From: Verrucomicrobiia bacterium
GTDB taxonomy: Bacteria > Verrucomicrobiota > Verrucomicrobiia > Verrucomicrobiales > DEV007
Direction of reading: 5' to 3'
NCBI GenBank assembly: GCA_030425385.1
Contig: JAUIAH010000027.1
Coordinates: forward strand, 1 to 64,000
Length of the DNA stretch: 64,000 nucleotides
The translations under genes were made by a program, and so were the position numbers. This document shows positions 1-8,564 of this stretch, piece by piece. The first letter of the stretch is position 1, and each line of letters starts with the position of its first letter. Under the pieces are notes generated by a model, which made no database searches, was not told the DNA's origin, and saw nothing but the letters and a program-made list of their open reading frames with translations.

Positions 1-80
1 CAACACTCGGTAGTGACTACTGGCTAGGTTCTATCACATATGGACTTGCACCATATAAGAAGCGCCTCGCTTTGCTCGGC
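1..80 (-). other. Partial integron cassette, no gene visible
   Basis: This is the beginning of the fifth cassette, entered from the attC at 81-208 and reading leftwards. Only about 80 bases are present. The minus strand has an ATG shortly after the cassette boundary, but it runs into a stop after a few codons. No product can be proposed. Confidence 0.5.
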
Positions 81-208
81 GCACAACGTCGAAGTGGTGG
101 CACCCGCTACCGGGAGCGCCAGTCCGATTCAGGATAAAGGGTTCTAATCACGGTTCAATCTCCGACTCGCGGCGTGGTAGCGGGTTGTCCACCCACGTCT
201 TGTTCGCT
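81..208 (-). repeat. attC recombination site (between cassettes 4 and 5)
   Basis: Read on the minus strand, the site starts with an inverse core ending in AAC (202-208, gttcgct on plus) and ends with a core starting GTT (81-87, gcacaac on plus). The arms are complementary: acccgctaccgggagcg near 100-118 pairs with ggtagcgggtt near 175-187, with the centre unpaired. The outer arm segment is nearly identical to that of the attC at 2000-2127. The stop codon of the ankyrin gene (148-150) lies inside the site, as is common for cassette genes. Confidence 0.88.
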
Positions 209-1035
209 GCTGGTTTTAGAGCGGCTTCGATTATCTCTCTCACCTGCGCATAATCTTGCGACATCGATTTGATTTGCTTCTCAGTGTAACCATCCAACTT
301 GAAGTCTCTGGTTCGAAATGGTTTTTGGGCAAGTTCGATGATCGTTCGTCCATACGGATCTCTCTTCGTTCTTGGGTTCGCGCCTCTATCGACGAGTAAC
401 CATCGAACGACTTCAGGCTGACCGCGACTTACTGCGAATGACAGCCGATCGCTCCAACGCCTGTGCTTAGCTTCAGGGATCTCGACGAGATACTCAATTA
501 CCCGAATTTGCCCGTGTTGGAACGCCACATCGAGAGGCGACCTCTTGTTTCTGTCTAGAGGCTTGGGGCAGCATCCACGTTCTAGAAGGCGTGCCGCATG
601 AGCCGCAGATCCAACTTCGGCGGCGTAATGTAGTGGGGTTTGTCCGTTTCTGTCCCTCGCATCCACAAATGCTCCTCTCTCAAGCAGCGACACAATGAAG
701 TGCTCATTGACAGCACTCGCTGCGTAATGGAGAGGGCTGAGCCTACAGTGCGAAGTCCGCTGATCAATTGGGGCACCTGCCTCAAGTGCTCGACTGAAGA
801 GTGATACATCTCCGCGATCAATCGCCCAATGAAGAGCCCCCAAACCACTGCGATCTAGGCGCTCAAAGTCCAACTCGCTCTCGTCAGCCGACTCCAAAAG
901 CGACTTCCAGTATCTAAATTTGGAGCCACCGGCGGCAGTGTTCGCACAGGGCGCACATCTCCCATCATTCAGATCCGCTGTGATCTGCATGATGCTGGCG
1001 CCGCAGGAGGCACATTGTGCTTTGATTGGCGGCAT
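148..1035 (-). CDS. Ankyrin-repeat protein with N-terminal four-cysteine zinc-ribbon-like module (integron cassette)
   Basis: This 295-residue soluble protein has no signal peptide. The N-terminus has paired cysteines C8-x2-C11 and C27-x2-C30, the second pair within RCAPC, which suggests a small metal-binding ribbon. Residues about 60-250 hold roughly five ankyrin repeats; the clearest have GLGALHWAIDRGD, SPLHYAA and QTPLHYAAEVGS cores. Ankyrin repeats bind partner proteins, so this is probably an adaptor, inhibitor or immunity-type protein, but no function can be assigned. The ATG lies only about a dozen bases inside the cassette boundary and has no obvious ribosome-binding site. The stop codon falls in the downstream attC. 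The cysteine module recurs with identical spacing in the cassette gene at 2133-2651. Confidence 0.85.
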   Translation of the reverse strand: MPPIKAQCASCGASIMQITADLNDGRCAPCANTAAGGSKFRYWKSLLESADESELDFERLDRSGLGALHWAIDRGDVSLFSRALEAGAPIDQRTSHCRLSPLHYAASAVNEHFIVSLLERGAFVDARDRNGQTPLHYAAEVGSAAHAARLLERGCCPKPLDRNKRSPLDVAFQHGQIRVIEYLVEIPEAKHRRWSDRLSFAVSRGQPEVVRWLLVDRGANPRTKRDPYGRTIIELAQKPFRTRDFKLDGYTEKQIKSMSQDYAQVREIIEAALKPAANKTWVDNPLPRRESEIEP

Positions 1036-1042
1036 TCTTTAA

Positions 1043-1170
1043 AGCGAACGTCTAGGACCACTGAATCCCGGCAGACGGGAAGCGTGAATCGCTGGGTTGA
1101 TCTTCCTGGTTCATTGTCAGTGGTTTTGGCACGAGAAGTAGCCGGGGTTCAGTGCGTCCTCTTGTTCGGA
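1043..1170 (-). repeat. attC recombination site (between cassettes 3 and 4)
   Basis: On the minus strand the inverse core lies at 1164-1170 (gttcgga on plus) and the core at 1043-1049 (agcgaac on plus). The arms pair imperfectly: ccactgaatcccggc near 1058-1072 against gccggggttcagtgcg near 1141-1156. Total length is 128 bp, matching the other sites in the array. Confidence 0.87.
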
Positions 1171-1436
1171 AGTCGCCCACCCTCGCCATCTGTTTCTGTA
1201 GTCTACTCGCCGCCCCCTCTTGCACAAGTTCTTTGAGGGCGAGCTTCCTCGGCACGAGCGGTATTCGATCTACCAGATTCTTGGATGTCTGATGGTCTTC
1301 TCGTGACGTGGATCCGTTCGTCGTCGGGCGGCTATCGATGCGGCAGATTTCCTTGCTAGATTTTTGTTAGATTAATGAAGAGTCTGCCTGTGATCTGGGA
1401 CTATCACTTTATCCGCCTGCGGAGATCTCTAATGCA
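1171..1436 (-). other. Body of cassette 3, no convincing gene
   Basis: This 266-bp cassette body lies between two attC sites. The minus strand has an open frame from about 1355 to 1052 encoding a charged peptide with the segment RKLALKELVQEGAASRLQ, but its only start in a plausible position is GTG at 1255 and it reads through the downstream attC. The helical segment resembles the tail of small antitoxin-like proteins, though not enough to name one. It could be a decayed gene, a promoter-carrying cassette or a non-coding RNA. No ATG-initiated gene was found. Confidence 0.4.
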
Positions 1437-1563
1437 TCCGAACGTCGAGGACCAGTGGCCACTCTCGACGAGCAGCTTCCGACCGCGAGATCTGGGTTGT
1501 AGTTAGAAATCATCTCCAGAAACTCCGACCATGAGAGTGGTCAACTGCGTCCAATTGTTAGCC
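1437..1563 (-). repeat. attC recombination site (between cassettes 2 and 3)
   Basis: On the minus strand the inverse core is GGCTAAC (1557-1563) and the core is GTTCGGA (1437-1443). The arms pair: ccagtggccactctc near 1452-1466 against gagagtggtcaactgcg near 1533-1549. Length is 127 bp. The outer arm shares aacgtc followed by aggacca with the attC at 1043-1170. Confidence 0.88.
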
Positions 1564-1568
1564 TTTTT

Positions 1569-1961
1569 TCATTCTTTTGATGGCTTTTCGTCATCTGGTT
1601 TAGAAGAGACAACTACGACATCTCCAGCTTTCATCTCGAAGTAGCCGTTCTGAATTTTCTTTCCATCAACGATGATTCCGTTAATCGCACTAGTATTCAA
1701 TCGCACAACTTCGCCTCTCCTAACAACGATCAAGTTTGTAGCGTCGGCTCCATCGGTGAATCCTCCACTGGCAACTAAACAATCTAACAACCTAATTCCT
1801 TCTCGATGACGAATGACCGAAGGCCGCTTCACGTCGCCGACAACCGTTACTCCTTCTGCGGATTCTGATATCGGCTTGGCTTCAACCGCTTTGTCTGCCT
1901 GCAAGGAAGGCGCGTTCAGCACCAAGAGACTGAGGACAACTAGGAGCGTTTGTATATTCAT
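1569..1961 (-). CDS. Small exported SLBB-domain protein (integron cassette)
   Basis: The product is 130 residues with an N-terminal signal peptide (LLVVLSLLVLNAPSLQA) and one soluble ligand-binding beta-grasp (SLBB) fold at about 35-115. The SLBB signature is seen in VTVVGDVKRPSVIRHREG, LLDCLVASGGFTDGAD, NLIVVRRGE and a closing MKAGDVVVV. In Wza-type polysaccharide export proteins this domain follows a Poly_export domain. Here it stands alone, so the protein is probably a periplasmic binding module rather than an exporter. The ATG at 1961 was preferred to an in-frame TTG six bases upstream. The gene begins about 40 bp inside its cassette and stops a few bases before the attC. Confidence 0.8.
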   Translation of the reverse strand: MNIQTLLVVLSLLVLNAPSLQADKAVEAKPISESAEGVTVVGDVKRPSVIRHREGIRLLDCLVASGGFTDGADATNLIVVRRGEVVRLNTSAINGIIVDGKKIQNGYFEMKAGDVVVVSSKPDDEKPSKE

Positions 1962-1999
1962 ATCCAACGATCTGCGTTCAGTTAAAATCTAGATTGGCT

Positions 2000-2127
2000 G
2001 GCTAACGTCCAAGCGCTGGCACCCGCTACCGGGAGCGCCGCGTCGCAACAGGGTTAAGTGTTAGAGTAAAGAGGGTCATGTCAACTCGCGGCGGGGTAGC
2101 GGGTTGTCCAGCCGCGCCTTGTTCGGT
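2000..2127 (-). repeat. attC recombination site (between cassettes 1 and 2)
   Basis: On the minus strand the inverse core ends GAAC (2121-2127, gttcggt on plus) and the core is GTTAGCC (2000-2006). The complementary arms are acccgctaccgggagcg near 2021-2037 and ggtagcgggttgtcc near 2096-2110. Length is 128 bp. The arms are almost the same as those of the attC at 81-208, so these two cassettes share an attC subtype. Confidence 0.9.
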
Positions 2128-2132
2128 CTTGG

Positions 2133-2651
2133 TTAGTCTGCGAACTTGGCTTCGAGCTGTTCAATCGGGGTCTCAGCTTCGTTCGCGACTTCATAGTTCT
2201 TCTCGTGTGCCCCTAGCTCTTCGTTGGAGATGAGGAACTCCTCGACCAGTTCGGGATCAAAGTATCCCTCCGGCGAACATCCCGCCTCGATGAAGTCCAA
2301 GAGTCCGTGAATTGCAGCCTCGCACTTTGGAGCGTCGACTTGTTTGAGGCTGTGAAGGACGGTGAGAATCTCATCAACGTCAGTCTGATCGAGCCCGTCG
2401 AAATAGAGCAGGTTGGTGAACTGGGTAAGAATCGTATGAGGATCGTCGAATGGCTCCTTTGAAAGCTCCCGAACAATCTTCTTGTCTCGCTTCAGTCTTT
2501 CGCGCTCTTCAGCGTGTGCCTTGGCAGCCTTCTCCTTCCGCTCGATGCGCCCTGGATCCTTCCAGCATGGCATGCAGCGGTTGTCGGTTGCCTCGGCCGT
2601 GGTCTGAAGAATCTCAGTACCGCAAAGTCTGCATGTTGTCTTCACAGTCAT
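2133..2651 (-). CDS. Hypothetical protein with N-terminal four-cysteine zinc-ribbon-like module (first integron cassette)
   Basis: This 172-residue soluble protein is rich in Glu, Asp and Lys. With the start chosen here, the N-terminus carries C7-x2-C10 and C26-x2-C29 (RCMPC), the same spacing as in the ankyrin cassette protein at 148-1035. A helical Lys/Glu segment (about 35-65) and an acidic helical C-terminal part follow, with no recognised family. A start ten codons upstream (2681) exists in frame, but it lies on the attI side of the cassette junction at 2659-2665. The ATG at 2651, inside the mobile cassette, is therefore much more likely. As the first cassette it should be the best expressed. 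Confidence 0.75.
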   Translation of the reverse strand: MTVKTTCRLCGTEILQTTAEATDNRCMPCWKDPGRIERKEKAAKAHAEERERLKRDKKIVRELSKEPFDDPHTILTQFTNLLYFDGLDQTDVDEILTVLHSLKQVDAPKCEAAIHGLLDFIEAGCSPEGYFDPELVEEFLISNEELGAHEKNYEVANEAETPIEQLEAKFAD

Positions 2652-2658
2652 TTTTCTG

Positions 2659-2704
2659 ACCGAACGTTGTATATACGACACGTGCGATATATCACCGGAT
2701 ATAT
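2659..2704 (-). other. attI region: cassette junction and AT-rich inverted repeat
   Basis: The junction with the first cassette is the core accgaac (2659-2665 on plus, GTTCGGT on minus). Next to it lies a perfect inverted repeat, ATATATC (2687-2693) and GATATAT (2698-2704) around a 4-bp spacer. attI sites usually carry integrase-binding repeats beside the exchange point, so this palindrome may be an IntI binding site or part of the cassette promoter region. Position and core match are seen directly; the binding role is inferred. Confidence 0.6.
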
Positions 2705-2797: not shown

Positions 2798-2810
2798 GTT
2801 CGGATGAACG
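2797..2810 (+). promoter_or_regulatory. LexA-type SOS operator overlapping the intI start
   Basis: TGTTC-GGAT-GAACG matches the palindrome TGTTC-N4-GAACA described for verrucomicrobial LexA at nine of ten fixed positions. The box overlaps the likely -10 element and the ATG at 2804. Integrase genes in many bacteria are repressed by LexA, so SOS control of cassette recombination is the natural reading. LexA itself is not in the window. Confidence 0.65.
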
Positions 2811-4399
2811 CTTTCCATGACTCGGATTTGCCTCGCCATGCGGCTTGGTTGGAGCGTCTTTTGGATCGGGCAGACGGGTTGGTGGGGAAGCGGCGGTTTT
2901 GGTTCGGGGTTTGGATCAAGCGTTTTCGATGCTTTTGCTACAGTGATCCTGTTCATACGGGGATCGCACTCATTCCTCTTTGCCAAGCGTATTTGCATCA
3001 CTTGGAGTCTCGGCCCGATGTTCCCGATTGGCAAGCAGATCAGGCGCGCGAAGCGCTTCGTCTTTTCGCCAGGGAGATCGAGCATTGGCGATGGAAGGCG
3101 GATCAGATCTGCTTTCGGTTGCGGACGACTCTGCCGGTCCGGGACCTCCCGGTTCCCGTGGTCCCTCCTGATGGCGGAGAACGGCAAGGGGGCGCTTCGG
3201 CGAGGGAGATTATGCCCGCAGTGGCGGGTGACCCTTCGATTCCAGCCGTTTCTGCCCCTGAGATGGCGTTGCGGCGCGGGGCACCGGATCCGCGTGCGGC
3301 GTTGCCCGTTGTGGAGGGCCCAAAGGCGAGTGGAGGGGAGCGCTCTGAGCGTTCCGTGAGTGATTCTGTTTCCGCCGGACGCGAGGCGGGGCTTGATATG
3401 AGTGCTAAGGGAGAGGCGAGCGAGCCGGCAGCGCTGCAGGCGATGCGCTTGGCGTTGGCGGGTGGGCATTATGCGTTGGCGACTGAGCGGTCGTATCTTT
3501 CTTGGGTGCGGCGTTATTTGGCGCATTGGGGTGGTGAGGAGGCGGCACGGGCGCGAGGCACTCAGGGCGCGAAGTCCTTTTTGGAGATGTTGGCGTGTCG
3601 GGGACGGGTGACGGCGTCGACTCAGAATCAGGCGTTTTCGGCAATTCTGTTTTTGTTTCGTTATGTGTGGAAGCTTTCTTTGGATGATATGGAGACGACG
3701 ATTCGTGCGCGGCGTTCTGAGCGGCTTCCGACGGTGCTTTCGTCATCGGAGACGGCAAGCGTGTTGGCAGAGGTGGGGATGGCGGATGGCCCAGGGGTGC
3801 TGATTCATTTGCTTTACGGATGTGGATTGCGAGTTCGTGAGGCGTTGACGCTGCGGCTGAAGGATGTGGATTTGAAGCGTGGTGTCTTGGAGATTCGGGC
3901 CGGGAAGGGACGGAAGGACCGGTTGGTGACGGTTCCTCGAGCGCTTGAGACGGTGTTATCCAAGCGCTTGAAGGCTATGGAGCGTTTGTGGGAGGTGGAT
4001 CAGGCAGAGGGGTTGCCTGGGGTGGCGCTCCCGGATGCGCTGGAGAAGAAGTGGCCGAACGCTGGGAGGCAGCTTGGTTGGCAGTGGTTGTTTCCTGGGC
4101 GTGAGGTTTCGAAGGATCCTCGTAGCGGGACCGTGAGACGCCATCATTTGCATGGGGCGACTGTGCAACGGCGCTTGAAGCGAGCGGTGGACGCTTGCGG
4201 GATGACGCGCCGCGTGACTTGCCATGTGTTGCGCCATTCCTTTGCGACGCATCTGTTAGAGCGCGGGACGGATATCCGTACGGTGCAGGAGTTGTTAGGG
4301 CATTCGAGTCTTGAGACCACTCAAGTTTATACGCATGTGATGGAGCGCCCTGGCGCGATGGGGACACGGAGTCCCTTGGATTTGCCCATGGTGGCGTGA
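2804..4399 (+). CDS. intI: Integron integrase (IntI) with a long N-terminal extension
   Basis: This tyrosine recombinase inserts and shuffles cassettes at attI x attC. It is 531 residues long; IntI proteins are usually about 320-340. The canonical part begins near residue 213 with a SAM-like core-binding domain (HYALATERSYLSWVRRYLAH). The catalytic residues are R343 (CGLRVREAL), a Lys in the GKGRKDRL loop near 368-371, H474 and R477 (HVLRHSFATHLL), H500 and Y509. The segment at 416-450, with WPNAGRQLGWQWLFP and DPRSGTVRRHHLH, is the extra patch that separates IntI from XerC/D. Residues 1-110 form an additional helical domain (FWFGVWIKRF, DQAREALRLFAREIEHW), joined by a low-complexity linker at about 115-205. 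No earlier ATG exists before an upstream stop. Confidence 0.95.
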   Translation: MNAFHDSDLPRHAAWLERLLDRADGLVGKRRFWFGVWIKRFRCFCYSDPVHTGIALIPLCQAYLHHLESRPDVPDWQADQAREALRLFAREIEHWRWKADQICFRLRTTLPVRDLPVPVVPPDGGERQGGASAREIMPAVAGDPSIPAVSAPEMALRRGAPDPRAALPVVEGPKASGGERSERSVSDSVSAGREAGLDMSAKGEASEPAALQAMRLALAGGHYALATERSYLSWVRRYLAHWGGEEAARARGTQGAKSFLEMLACRGRVTASTQNQAFSAILFLFRYVWKLSLDDMETTIRARRSERLPTVLSSSETASVLAEVGMADGPGVLIHLLYGCGLRVREALTLRLKDVDLKRGVLEIRAGKGRKDRLVTVPRALETVLSKRLKAMERLWEVDQAEGLPGVALPDALEKKWPNAGRQLGWQWLFPGREVSKDPRSGTVRRHHLHGATVQRRLKRAVDACGMTRRVTCHVLRHSFATHLLERGTDIRTVQELLGHSSLETTQVYTHVMERPGAMGTRSPLDLPMVA

Positions 4400-4457: not shown

Positions 4458-4518
4458 GGAACTTCTCGTGGCGTTCTCGCCCTGTTGCTCTATTGCGTTG
4501 ACTGGTAGGAGCAGGCTT

Positions 4519-6780
4519 ATGAGAATACTATCAACCGTTCCCCACAACGTACTTGAGATGCTTTTCAGATCCTCCCTTCTCCGCGTGTTCTTGGCGTCTT
4601 CCTTGGCTTACCTCGGAGGTCTTGGGGTGCATCGGTGGCTTTCTCCTCGCGTGATGGAGGAGATGGGCGGGATTGAAAGGACCATTGTTAGTGAAAGGCC
4701 GTTATTGTCTCTTGAGCAGGCTTCTGGTTCACTGGCAATATCCTTGGCGACTTGGCTGGAGATGGCGGCGACGGATCCTCTGGGAACGGCACCCACTATC
4801 ACGACGGCCATGGCAGCGTTGGATCAGGAGGCCCTCGCGCAGCTTGCCGAAACCTGGGCCACGCTTGAGGCACACCCGCCTTCGACTTTGGCGGCGCGCC
4901 TCGTGCACGATGCGCTGTTCTTTCGCTGGGCTACGGTGGATCCGGCTGGCTTGTTAGGCTATATCAATCAAGGGCCACGATATCGCATGGGGCATGATGG
5001 AGCGATTGCGGCGGCGATCTTGCAATGGGCCTTACGCAATCCTAGCGATGCCTTTGCGGCCGCTCGCTCCTCCCACCAACCAGACGCTTGTGCCAATGGG
5101 ATTCTTCAAACCGTGACTTTGCTAGGGCCACGGTGCGCATCCACCCTGGCAGAACACTTGAACCAGACACAGGATATCAACCTTTATCGTCGCCGTGACG
5201 AGATTCCGAATATGCTCGTGGATTGGGCCATGGAGTCACCCTCTGCGGCTGTGGCTTGGTTGAGCCTGTTGCATCGGAACGATCTTCGGAGATCGATCGC
5301 CCGCCCTTTCTTCACCCAGTGGGCAAAGATTGATGCCACGGCAGCCACGAAAGCGTTAGAAGGGCAGCGGCGCACGACGGATCGCGACAGTCTTATGCGT
5401 TCCGTCGCGCAAGCTTGGCATGAAGAGGATCCGATAGCAGCAACGGCTTGGGCGGAAGCATGCGGCGTGGCTAGCGTCTGGGAGACGATTCAATTCGCAG
5501 GCCTTTGGAAGACCCTCAGTGACGATCCCCTCTCCCTCACTCCCGCCCAATTGGCTGCCCTTCCACGCGGAGGTCAACGTGCCAGCGTGCTTCGCAGCCT
5601 TGTCAGCCAAACCCTCAGCCACGACTTTGAAAGGACGAAGACCCTGATCGATCAATTGCCTAAGAACGAGCAACTTCCCTTGCGCCTCAAGCTGGCGGAT
5701 GAGCTGGCGGATGAGGGCCAAGCCACTTTCGAGGCGAATGAAGCGCTCGACTTCCTAGCAGACCTCCCTCCCGGCACGGAACGCGCCATCCACTCGCTTC
5801 GATTGGCTGCGCGGTTAGGGGAACGCGATCCCGAAGGGCTCTTCCAGTGGTTGGCCGATCATCCAGAGGCGCTGGATCACGAACGCATGCTGATGGCGGC
5901 GGTGAAGCCGTGGGTAAAGAATGACCTCGCTGGTGCCCAAGACATGCTGCGCGTGTCTCCTGATTCCCCAGCCTCGCGAGAATTGGCATCGGAGATCTCC
6001 AGACAATTGTTAGAAATTGATCCTGACACTCTTCTGTCTTTTGCCAAGGAGATCACTGAGCCCTCCGTGGCAACGCATCTCTACGACGCCTACGATATCC
6101 ATCAGGCCAAAGCTAATCCTGTCACTTTCCTAAAGGAAGCTGCCCAGCAAGCATCCCTCCCGAAGGACCAAGCCGTTCACGCCGCTCTCGAAAACCTCGC
6201 TCAAGTGGATCTGGATGCCGCCGTGACTTGGGCGCGCGAGCAAGCGGATCGGCTTCCTCAAGAGGCGATGGAAAGACTGGCACGCGCTGCTGCCAGGACC
6301 GACTTAGCAGCAGCTAGAACCATAGCTGACGCCGTGGTGAACGATCCCAAGCTGCGCAATCAGGGCCGTAGTGTGGTGGTGACCCTTACCAACGCATGGA
6401 CTGACGAGGATCCGGTGGCGGCGAGCACCTGGGCACTCGCGATGCCACCAAGCGAACTTCGCAATGCGGCGGTGGAGAACGTTGCCAATCATTGGAGTCG
6501 CCGCGACTGGCCTGCCGCGCGCAGATGGATCGAAAGCCTCCCTCCAGGCGCGCTCCGCGACACGGCGATCGAGGGCGTCCGGTGGCCTCTCAACCAACGC
6601 GATCCCCGGCTACTGCTCGATGCCTTGCCGCTTGTCAGCTCGGAAACGACACGCACCAAATGGCAGAGCGATCTCTTTAGCCAATGGGTCCGTCAAGACC
6701 GTGCGGCTGCCCACGCCGCCGCCGAAGAGATCGGGCTTTCCTCGGATGAGATGCAAACCCTCTTTGGAGAAACACCATGA
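4519..6780 (+). CDS. Large exported or membrane-anchored helical-repeat protein (WxxxDP repeats), first of a pair
   Basis: The product is 753 residues. The start at 4519 was chosen because AGGAG lies about 8 bp upstream; a 17-codon longer form lacks this. A hydrophobic N-terminal segment (LLRVFLASSLAYLGGLGV) suggests a signal or anchor. The rest is made of degenerate units of about 30-40 residues whose cores read W-x3-D-P-x-A-A-x2-W followed by LP-x-G-x2-R-x2-A; WHEEDPIAATAWAEAC and WTDEDPVAASTWALAMP are clear examples. Such units form HEAT/TPR-like solenoids. No catalytic domain is visible, so it is probably a scaffold or binding protein of the cell envelope. The stop overlaps the start of the paralogue at 6777 (ATGA). 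Confidence 0.75.
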   Translation: MRILSTVPHNVLEMLFRSSLLRVFLASSLAYLGGLGVHRWLSPRVMEEMGGIERTIVSERPLLSLEQASGSLAISLATWLEMAATDPLGTAPTITTAMAALDQEALAQLAETWATLEAHPPSTLAARLVHDALFFRWATVDPAGLLGYINQGPRYRMGHDGAIAAAILQWALRNPSDAFAAARSSHQPDACANGILQTVTLLGPRCASTLAEHLNQTQDINLYRRRDEIPNMLVDWAMESPSAAVAWLSLLHRNDLRRSIARPFFTQWAKIDATAATKALEGQRRTTDRDSLMRSVAQAWHEEDPIAATAWAEACGVASVWETIQFAGLWKTLSDDPLSLTPAQLAALPRGGQRASVLRSLVSQTLSHDFERTKTLIDQLPKNEQLPLRLKLADELADEGQATFEANEALDFLADLPPGTERAIHSLRLAARLGERDPEGLFQWLADHPEALDHERMLMAAVKPWVKNDLAGAQDMLRVSPDSPASRELASEISRQLLEIDPDTLLSFAKEITEPSVATHLYDAYDIHQAKANPVTFLKEAAQQASLPKDQAVHAALENLAQVDLDAAVTWAREQADRLPQEAMERLARAAARTDLAAARTIADAVVNDPKLRNQGRSVVVTLTNAWTDEDPVAASTWALAMPPSELRNAAVENVANHWSRRDWPAARRWIESLPPGALRDTAIEGVRWPLNQRDPRLLLDALPLVSSETTRTKWQSDLFSQWVRQDRAAAHAAAEEIGLSSDEMQTLFGETP

Positions 6781-8564
6781 GGCTCTTTCTTGCGATCACC
6801 TTAGCCGCAATGTTAGGAATTGCCACTGATCGGTGGATCCTCTCCCCAACCGTCAGCGCGGAGAGAATCAATATGCCTTCACGCGACCATCTCCTACCCG
6901 ATTCACGCCAGGACACCCGCACGCCAGCATTCCGTACACGAGTGTCTCAAGCGATTGATCAGAACAACACCGCTGCCGTGTGGACGGCACTGGCAGCGGC
7001 GTTTGGCGATGCCACTCCCGAAGAGGTGCGTGCCGCTCTGAAGGCCCTTCTCCAGCAACCCGTGGCCAATGAAGCGCAGCCGTGGAAAGACCCTTCCCGA
7101 CCACGTGCTGAGGCGATGATCGAGCTTCTGCTTTTCTGGCAGATGCCAGAAATGGTCACCGATCTCCTGACAGAAGTTCCTGATCGCATTACCCGTTCAT
7201 TGCTCATGCGGGCCTTCCAGGCACACTATCAGAAAGACCCAACCACTGCATCGGCGCTAGCTGAGGCATCCCTTGGCAAGCATTTCGAAGGTTTCGACTG
7301 GATGGCAGAGACCGTCACCTTCGCTGGCCCCATTACCGTAAGGTGGACGTTGCCTGATCCACTATCAGAAACAGACGACTGCCTGGCCGAATTGGATGCC
7401 CTGTCACCGCAGGAACGTTTTCAGATCATCAAAGCCATGTACCATTCACCCGGAGGAATCGGCAACCCTATCTCCAATTTCTGGACAACCTATCCCGAGA
7501 TCGCGGCGCGCTTTGTCGAGAGGATGCCGGCCGGCTCGAATGAGCGAGGGAATGAGATTCTAACCGTCGCCAAAGCGTGGGCCGAGACGGATCCCGAGAA
7601 CGCCGTTGCTTGGTTAGAGTCCCTCAATGACCTCGCCGGCACCCGGAGGGCTTGGGGAGGCACCTTGCAGGCGTGGGCCGAGAGGGATCCGCAAGCGGCG
7701 GCGGGCTGGTTGGAGGGCAAGCCCTTTGATGAGCGCACGCAAACGGCGGCCTGGGCTATCGCGGAGCAATGGGCAGACAACGATCCTCACAAAGCACTCC
7801 ATTGGGCCTCTTCTCTCTCCGATCCTGATTTGCGTCGGGAAGCGCTCAAGCGCTCCGCCTTTCAGTGGGGTCGGAATGATCCCGAAACGGCACTCGCTCA
7901 CGTCCTTCATACAGTGGACGGCGAAACGCAAGGCGTCATGCTACGCGCGGTCTATCAGGCTTACGGGAATGCTGATCTAGAGACCGCATGGGAATCGGTA
8001 GACCTGTTAGATGAGGCTCAACGAAAGACGGCACTTGGAGCGCTCTTGGAAAGGGCCCATTCCAGTGGACTTGAGGACCTTTCCCTTCATGTCGAGATCG
8101 CGACGGCCTACGCTCAAACGCACCCCACCACGCCTGAGAACCAGGCTCACGTGCCGGTTCTCAATCGGCTCGCCATGACCATGGCTCAGCAAGACGCGAC
8201 GCATGCCCTCACATGGGCCTTAAGCCTTCCAGAAGGCGATCCCCGGGACGCCTCCCTCAGTGGTCTCTTTCAGCAATGGTCTCAAGTCGACCCTATCACG
8301 GCCACCGAGGCTCTCGCGACCCTTTCGCCAGGTCCCGATCGCGACACTGCGATTGATGCCGCCTTCTACGGTCTCCGTCAACGCGACCCGGAGCGGGCTT
8401 TCCACTGGGCCTTGGCGGTAGAATCCTCTGCCTCGCGAGAGAAACTCTTGAACCAATCCGTCTCCCGCTGGCCCAACGATCCTCACATGCTTCGACAGCT
8501 GATCGACGAAGCGTCGACCCTCTCTCCCGAGCTGCGCGCATCCTTGCTTCAGCAAATCCGTTAG
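6777..8564 (+). CDS. Exported helical-repeat protein (WxxxDP repeats), paralogue of the upstream gene
   Basis: The product is 595 residues with a clean N-terminal signal or anchor (RLFLAITLAAMLGIATDRWI). It has the same kind of repeat as the preceding protein, and here the units are more regular: AWAETDPENAVAWLESL, AWAERDPQAAAGWLEG, QWADNDPHKALHWASSL, QWGRNDPETALAHVL, QWSQVDPITATEAL. The ATG overlaps the upstream stop by 4 bp, so translation is coupled and the two are probably partners. No known function; a solenoid scaffold at the envelope is inferred from the signal and repeats. Confidence 0.78.
   Translation: MRLFLAITLAAMLGIATDRWILSPTVSAERINMPSRDHLLPDSRQDTRTPAFRTRVSQAIDQNNTAAVWTALAAAFGDATPEEVRAALKALLQQPVANEAQPWKDPSRPRAEAMIELLLFWQMPEMVTDLLTEVPDRITRSLLMRAFQAHYQKDPTTASALAEASLGKHFEGFDWMAETVTFAGPITVRWTLPDPLSETDDCLAELDALSPQERFQIIKAMYHSPGGIGNPISNFWTTYPEIAARFVERMPAGSNERGNEILTVAKAWAETDPENAVAWLESLNDLAGTRRAWGGTLQAWAERDPQAAAGWLEGKPFDERTQTAAWAIAEQWADNDPHKALHWASSLSDPDLRREALKRSAFQWGRNDPETALAHVLHTVDGETQGVMLRAVYQAYGNADLETAWESVDLLDEAQRKTALGALLERAHSSGLEDLSLHVEIATAYAQTHPTTPENQAHVPVLNRLAMTMAQQDATHALTWALSLPEGDPRDASLSGLFQQWSQVDPITATEALATLSPGPDRDTAIDAAFYGLRQRDPERAFHWALAVESSASREKLLNQSVSRWPNDPHMLRQLIDEASTLSPELRASLLQQIR

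What the first reader, a model, noticed from the sequence alone, without database searches (positions are those of the whole stretch)
148..2651. Two unrelated integron cassettes share an identical-spacing four-cysteine N-terminal module
The ankyrin protein (148-1035) and the first-cassette protein (2133-2651) both begin with C-x2-CG-x2-I-x3-TA-x6-RC-x-PC; the spacing C-x2-C-x15-C-x2-C is the same, while the rest of the proteins differ. A common zinc-ribbon tag attached to different binding domains in a shuffling array suggests a modular family of effectors, inhibitors or immunity proteins.
Basis: seen in the sequence. Interest (0 to 1): 0.65.

Follow-up and report, generated by a model that had tools for sequence, protein, structure and literature searches.

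The report
Zinc-finger module on mobile immunity-type cassettes
Two neighbouring gene cassettes in a Verrucomicrobia-type integron begin with the same undescribed 30-residue four-cysteine zinc-finger-like module, which sits on many unrelated antidote-type protein domains, often in mobile cassettes, suggesting that integrons collect and trade protection against rival bacteria's toxins.

Summary
The ankyrin protein (148-1035, -) and the first-cassette protein (2133-2651, -) share a homologous N-terminal C-x2-C-x15-C-x2-C module. A profile built without them finds both at E about 5e-10, with nothing else in the window below 0.48. The same genome carries a third copy, also in a cassette. I collected 46 module genes. 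It is a sparse accessory module (about 1-4% of sampled genomes), absent from Pfam and NCBIfam, fused to about 25 different C-terminal domains. Recognisable partners are mostly immunity-type (DMP19/DUF4375, DUF1963-like, ankyrin). At least 17 of the 46 genes lie in integron arrays in 11 genomes or records, including Vibrio and Pseudomonadales-type arrays. Two non-integron copies sit beside an Rhs protein or a HINT-AHH toxin. The arrays also carry SUKH, Barstar, Imm21, Imm34 and DUF1963 cassettes. The first-cassette gene moved as an intact cassette between two genera (96% identity, ending at the recombination sites). The integron shuffles whole genes, not the module. AlphaFold predicts a treble-clef-like finger. 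Best reading: mobile orphan immunity-type proteins sharing a constant zinc-finger module. Toxin neutralisation and zinc binding are inferred, not shown.

The parts
2133..2651 (-). First-cassette protein (172 aa): zinc-finger-like module + 140-aa C-terminal part of unknown family
   Evidence: 12 synonymous vs 5 non-synonymous codon changes against its copy in genome G057
2565..2633 (-). Four-cysteine core of the module in the first-cassette protein (C7..C29)
   Evidence: sequence; leave-out profile E 4.8e-10; AlphaFold pLDDT 93-97
148..1035 (-). Ankyrin cassette protein (295 aa): module + ankyrin repeats
   Evidence: Pfam Ank E 2.1e-21
946..1014 (-). Four-cysteine core of the module in the ankyrin protein (C8..C30)
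   Evidence: sequence; leave-out profile E 5.5e-10
2004..2668 (-). Whole first cassette, from the attI crossover to the attC GTT
   Evidence: 96.4% identical over 665 bp to a cassette in G057 (other genus, same family); the match ends at the two crossover points
2000..2127 (-). attC of the first cassette
   Evidence: attC model R1 112.1 bits (this site is in the training set); also a custom palindrome detector
1437..1563 (-). attC of the second (SLBB) cassette
   Evidence: attC model 62.0 bits
1043..1170 (-). attC of the third (non-coding) cassette; its GTT lies about 12 nt before the ankyrin ATG
   Evidence: attC model 69.5 bits
81..208 (-). attC of the ankyrin cassette, followed right after GTT by an apparent group II intron 5' end
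   Evidence: attC model 109.3 bits; sequence
1569..1961 (-). Second cassette: SLBB-domain protein without the module
   Evidence: Pfam SLBB E 6.7e-13
1046..1446 (-). Third cassette, no clear gene; two near-identical copies (98-99%) in the second array of the same genome
2804..4399 (+). Integron integrase IntI (531 aa, with a roughly 200-aa N-terminal extension)
   Evidence: TIGR02249 364.8 bits, residues 211-526

Best explanation
The two window proteins belong to a wider, so far undescribed set of cytosolic immunity-type proteins. Each has a constant N-terminal treble-clef-like zinc finger (C-x2-C-x15-C-x2-C, about 30 residues) and a variable C-terminal domain. Most likely the variable domain binds and blocks a toxin delivered by a competing cell (Rhs or other polymorphic toxin), while the zinc finger is a common folding, dimerisation or docking part. 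In the integron they act as orphan immunity genes: a collectable reserve against other strains' toxins. The integrase moves them as whole-gene cassettes, and the start codon lies about 7-15 nt after the crossover, so the whole gene lands intact wherever it inserts. Shown: the module, its modularity, the cassette state, the whole-cassette transfer between genera, an excess of synonymous changes, and the company of immunity-type genes and, elsewhere, toxins. Inferred: zinc binding, toxin binding, and the finger's role.
For: Module homology. 43 module proteins fall into 25 C-terminal groups. Partners are DMP19 in 11/43, DUF1963-like in 3, DUF7832 in 1, ankyrin in 1; ankyrin (Imm-Ank, paired with AHH toxins), Imm34=DUF2314, SUKH and HEAT are listed immunity types in PMC3482391. 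Toxin neighbours: the L050 module gene lies after a 1757-aa protein with PT-HINT and AHH nuclease domains, with one gene between; the L051 module gene lies 97 nt after an Rhs-repeat protein. Array company: among 49 other cassette ORFs, SUKH x3, Imm21, Barstar, DUF1963, DUF2314/Imm34 and an ankyrin-DMP19 fusion. Cassette state: attC beside at least 17 of 46 module genes; 8 of 9 in the three genomes counted, where cassettes are about 0.5-1% of genes. Host rich in Rhs: 117 Rhs-repeat matches, many in frames of 1500-2900 aa, and an AHH domain. Whole-cassette transfer and selection.
Against: No toxin lies next to the window genes. 29 of 46 module genes are not in detected arrays, and only two or three of those have a recognisable toxin neighbour. 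About half of the proteins match no Pfam family in their C-terminal part, including the first-cassette protein and the one on contig 46. DMP19 itself was described as a DNA mimic (PMC5722371), not as an immunity protein, and the DUF1963 matches are below Pfam's cut-off. AlphaFold could not fold the first-cassette C-terminal part with confidence. Some partners look like membrane proteins (L045, L117, L124), which fit an immunity role only if the toxin acts at the membrane.
Confidence: 0.58

Rival explanations
1. The module proteins are anti-phage or stress-response cassettes: the zinc finger senses or binds nucleic acid or a phage protein and the variable domain acts. Integrons are known to hold defence genes.
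For: PADLOC's PDC-M72A and Ankyrin models hit the ankyrin protein; phrog_6107, a phage family of unknown function, matches a consensus of the module weakly (E 0.0015).
Against: The PADLOC hits cover only the ankyrin repeats; the other six module proteins scanned have no PADLOC match. No relatives in phage records or viral contigs. Neighbours are toxin/immunity genes, not known defence genes.
Confidence: 0.15
2. The proteins are regulators: the finger and an acidic partner such as DMP19 act on host DNA-binding proteins (DNA mimicry) or gyrase, as the small zinc protein YacG does.
For: DMP19 prevents DNA binding by HU and by NHTF (PMC5722371, abstract); DMP19 domain in 11/43; YacG bound to gyrase is among the weak structural matches.
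Against: Structural scores are at noise level (Foldseek E above 1, VIA-align Z 2.8 or less). Partners are far too diverse for one regulator, and the sporadic cassette-borne distribution does not suit a housekeeping regulator.
Confidence: 0.12
3. Antitoxin-like half of toxin-antitoxin cassettes that stabilise the array, the toxin partner being unrecognised.
For: A ParE toxin gene occurs in the Pseudomonadales-type array; TA genes are common in integrons (general knowledge; also the premise of PMC11089894).
Against: The window cassettes hold a single clear gene each; no partner ORF lies between the attC sites.
Confidence: 0.05

Closest known systems
Orphan immunity proteins and polyimmunity loci of polymorphic toxin systems (Zhang et al. 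2012, PMC3482391)
   Same: Unrelated immunity-type domains (ankyrin, SUKH, Barstar, Imm21, Imm34) gathered in one array without toxins; mobile; short genes in one direction.
   Different: Here the genes are integron cassettes each with its own attC, and several share a constant zinc-finger-like module; term searches of that paper found no mention of integron, zinc ribbon or DMP19.
Imm-Ank (ankyrin immunity proteins paired with Tox-AHH)
   Same: Ankyrin repeats; the host genome has an AHH domain.
   Different: The window ankyrin gene has no toxin neighbour and carries the extra N-terminal module.
DMP19-like / DUF4375 proteins (PF14300)
   Same: The commonest partner of the module, also in a Vibrio campbellii cassette annotated DUF4375.
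   Different: The two window proteins have no DMP19 domain; the Pfam DMP19 match starts downstream of the module.
Treble-clef zinc fingers (FYVE, FCS, YacG)
   Same: CxxC knuckle on a beta hairpin, then a helix starting at the second CxxC in the predicted model.
   Different: Only about 30 residues, no sequence similarity, structural Z 2.8 or less; homology not shown.
Sedentary chromosomal integron cassettes
   Same: IntI, attI, attC, one gene per cassette, whole-cassette transfer.
   Different: Cassettes with otherwise unrelated proteins share a homologous N-terminal module.

Membership tests
Integron gene cassette | Gene bounded by attI/attC recombination sites | tested here: met
   attC at 81-208, 1043-1170, 1437-1563, 2000-2127; cassette identity to G057 ends at the crossover points
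Integron gene cassette | Integron integrase adjacent | tested here: met
   2804-4399, TIGR02249 364.8 bits, cut-off 265
Polymorphic-toxin immunity protein | Gene next to a toxin gene | tested here: not met
   Not in the window. Met for relatives L050 (PT-HINT + AHH) and L051 (Rhs)
Polymorphic-toxin immunity protein | Domain of a listed immunity family | tested here: inconclusive
   Ankyrin protein: ankyrin repeats. First-cassette protein: no family
Polymorphic-toxin immunity protein | Neutralises a toxin | not testable with these tools
   needs an experiment
Zinc finger / zinc ribbon | Four conserved cysteines in two CxxC pairs | tested here: met
   Columns C7, C10, C26, C29 invariant in the 27-row alignment
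Zinc finger / zinc ribbon | Known zinc-binding fold | tested here: inconclusive
   AlphaFold pLDDT 91; weak treble-clef-type matches FYVE/FCS/YacG, Z 2.8 or less
Zinc finger / zinc ribbon | Binds zinc | not testable with these tools
   needs metal analysis
DMP19-like (PF14300) | Pfam DMP19 domain | tested here: not met
   No hit in either window protein; present in 11/43 module proteins
Known anti-phage system | PADLOC model over the protein | tested here: inconclusive
   Only ankyrin-repeat hits, PDC-M72A 5.3e-17

The most novel reading that the evidence does not exclude
Integron arrays of Verrucomicrobia and some Gammaproteobacteria serve as exchangeable polyimmunity libraries, and the shared treble-clef-like module is a universal adapter that brings structurally unrelated immunity domains to one common partner (a toxin-delivery feature, a ribosome or nucleic-acid site, or a protease/chaperone), letting new antidotes plug into one system.
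Probability: 0.22. Interest if true: 0.82.

Novelty: new variant of a known kind. Interest (0 to 1): 0.6.

Why it matters
Most integron cassettes have no known function. A module that marks a recognisable set of them, and that reappears beside polymorphic toxins, gives a handle for assigning function to many cassettes and for testing whether integrons store protection against competitors as well as drug resistance and phage defence. It also defines a domain family that Pfam and NCBIfam lack.

Tried and rejected
Housekeeping zinc ribbon: rejected (about 1-4% of sampled genomes). Recent DNA-level swapping of the module between cassettes: rejected (43-55% DNA identity; attC boundaries lie outside the gene). 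My first attC detector was too strict and reported no attC at loci such as L042 and L052, and too few at L056, L058 and L122; the covariance model corrected this, so understates the cassette link. Phage and viral contig searches found no relatives; these are short-query searches and weak evidence of absence. A solved-structure sequence search gave only single-CxxC matches at E 0.07 or worse. Foldseek with the whole first-cassette model gave nothing significant. A profile of the first-cassette C-terminal part found only its G057 copy and a weak hit broken by stop codons. Some search alignments contained designed consensus rows (A3; A4 also had one altered row); they were used only to find loci.

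Full report
OBSERVATION. The spacing C-x2-C-x15-C-x2-C is identical; the middle is TA-x5-RC, not x6. To test for chance I built a profile from 34 modules of other genomes, leaving out the window genome and array members L040 and L041 of its relative G057. Among 1267 six-frame ORFs of the window it ranks exactly these two first (E 4.8e-10 and 5.5e-10), and the next is 0.48. This is homology. The modules differ at about half of their nucleotides, so the shared start is old.

CASSETTES. The integrase at 2804-4399 passes the integron-integrase model (364.8 bits, cut-off 265). Reading away from it on the minus strand: attI, first-cassette gene, attC 2000-2127, SLBB gene (no module), attC 1437-1563, a non-coding cassette, attC 1043-1170, ankyrin gene, attC 81-208, then the contig end. 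The attC sites were found with a palindrome detector (no hits in 51 kb of shuffled sequence) and with a covariance model trained on 23 such sites, these included. The first cassette is 96.4% identical over 665 bp to a cassette in G057, a different genus of the same family, and the match ends at the two crossover points; the gene has 12 synonymous against 5 non-synonymous codon changes. So the cassette moves whole and its protein appears to be under selection. A third module gene in the same genome (contig 46, L009 6677-7321) starts about 11 nt after a crossover-like GTT and is followed by attC.

HOW WIDESPREAD. Evenly drawn samples gave the module at E 1e-5 in 10/286 genomes of the class, 9/387 of the phylum (G000 included in both) and 3/293 of the order of a Hahella genome. 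Candidates scored per genome were capped in those runs, so these are lower bounds. In all I collected 46 module genes. Named loci are mostly Verrucomicrobia, plus Hahella and a Vibrio campbellii plasmid. Pfam and NCBIfam have no model for it; the nearest is phrog_6107, unknown function, E 0.0015 to a consensus.

MODULARITY. 43 module proteins fall into 25 groups by their C-terminal parts (BLASTP 1e-4). Pfam recognises DMP19 in 11, DUF1963-like in 3 (below cut-off), DUF7832 in 1 and ankyrin in 1. In one protein (L047) the module is at the C-terminus. The four cysteines are invariant in the working alignments.

LINK TO INTEGRONS. At least 17 of the 46 genes have attC beside them: three in G000, three in G057 (L040, L041, L042), two identical copies in G311 (L116), and L046, L052, L053, L056, L058, L122, L126, L130, plus the V. 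campbellii gene among VCR-type repeats. That is 11 genomes or records. L053, L122 and L130 have a detected attC on the 3' side only; L126 and the two ends of L046 were judged by eye. In the three genomes where I counted attC sites (32, 58 and 49) cassettes are about 0.5-1% of genes, yet 8 of 9 module genes are cassettes (binomial 1e-7, 1e-6 and 3e-4). The first is inflated because the finding itself led me there; G057 without the first-cassette copy still gives 1.3e-4, and G311 with its two identical copies counted once gives only 0.02. The other 29 genes are not in detected arrays, so the module is not integron-exclusive. In one search I also computed 14 of 42; the correct count is 13 of 42, which does not change the conclusion.

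COMPANY. Outside integrons, L050 follows (with one gene between) a 1757-aa protein with a pretoxin HINT and an AHH nuclease domain, and L051 follows an Rhs-repeat protein by 97 nt. Within arrays, 49 other cassette ORFs include three SUKH, Imm21, Barstar, DUF1963, DUF2314 (Imm34), UPF0167, CPCC, DUF6572, and an ankyrin-DMP19 fusion. In L056 the module gene sits next to a SUKH gene, with a Barstar gene two genes upstream. PMC3482391 lists ankyrin, SUKH, Imm11 and Imm34 as immunity types and describes toxin-free polyimmunity loci, some beside XerC/D recombinases. The window genome itself has 117 Rhs-repeat matches, many in very long frames, and an AHH domain, so toxins of this type are at home in the host.

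STRUCTURE. AlphaFold gives the module pLDDT 91-97: a hairpin carrying the first CxxC, a short helix, and a helix starting at the second CxxC. Matches are FYVE, FCS, YacG and similar treble-clef types, all weak (Z 2.8 or less, Foldseek E above 1), as expected for 36 residues. I call it treble-clef-like and do not claim homology. The C-terminal part of the first-cassette protein was not modelled with confidence.

MECHANISM. Most likely these are cytosolic immunity-type proteins: the variable domain blocks an incoming toxin, and the constant finger gives folding, dimerisation or docking. In the integron they are orphan, tradeable antidotes. The integron shuffles whole genes and cannot itself swap module and domain, because the crossover lies before the start codon. 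Toxin neutralisation, zinc binding and the finger's role are inference. For the window pair the immunity reading rests on their relatives and on the company they keep.

LITERATURE. My searches of the held open-access papers found no description of this module and none of integron arrays as polyimmunity stores. PMC5361080 compares T6SS immunity arrays with integrons and states that there is so far no evidence of integrase involvement there; PMC11089894 mentions immunity proteins among predicted cassette-encoded effectors. Other searches. The library lacks most subscription journals, so novelty is provisional.

Noticed in passing
window 1-86; L009 10462-10579: The start of contig 37 and the end of contig 46 share a stretch beginning GTGCGCC right after an attC GTT, which looks like the 5' end of a group II intron inserted in attC; a separate group II intron core is matched by Rfam on the minus strand at L009 9932-10222. 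Such repeats probably broke the assembly here.
   Followed up: partly
window 1046-1446: A cassette without a clear gene has two further copies at 98-99% identity in the second array of the same genome (L009 7919-8318 and 8846-9246), alternating with a repeated 135-aa gene.
   Followed up: no
window 2804-4399: The integron integrase has an N-terminal extension of about 200 residues; several relatives also lie in open frames of 430-540 codons.
   Followed up: no
L040 114-1052: A G057 cassette encodes an ankyrin-DMP19 fusion without the module, joining two partner types of the module in one protein.
   Followed up: partly
L116 3717-4352 and 13618-14253: The same module-DMP19 cassette occurs twice, identical in protein, 10 kb apart in one array of a single-contig genome.
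   Followed up: no
window 81-208; L116 10081-10208: The attC of the window ankyrin cassette is nearly identical to an attC in a genome of another family, suggesting recent exchange.
   Followed up: no
L060 8582-9570: In the Vibrio campbellii array the region after the module-DMP19 gene holds a repeated element resembling an insertion sequence, apparently inserted in its attC.
   Followed up: no
L136 1839-2312: In the window's own genome an AHH-type toxin frame (contig 12) is followed by a gene that resembles an immunity protein by eye.
   Followed up: no
window 4468-6780 and 6777-8564: Two adjacent long ORFs beside the integrase look like paralogues made of repeated Ala/Trp-rich units; function unknown.
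   Followed up: no
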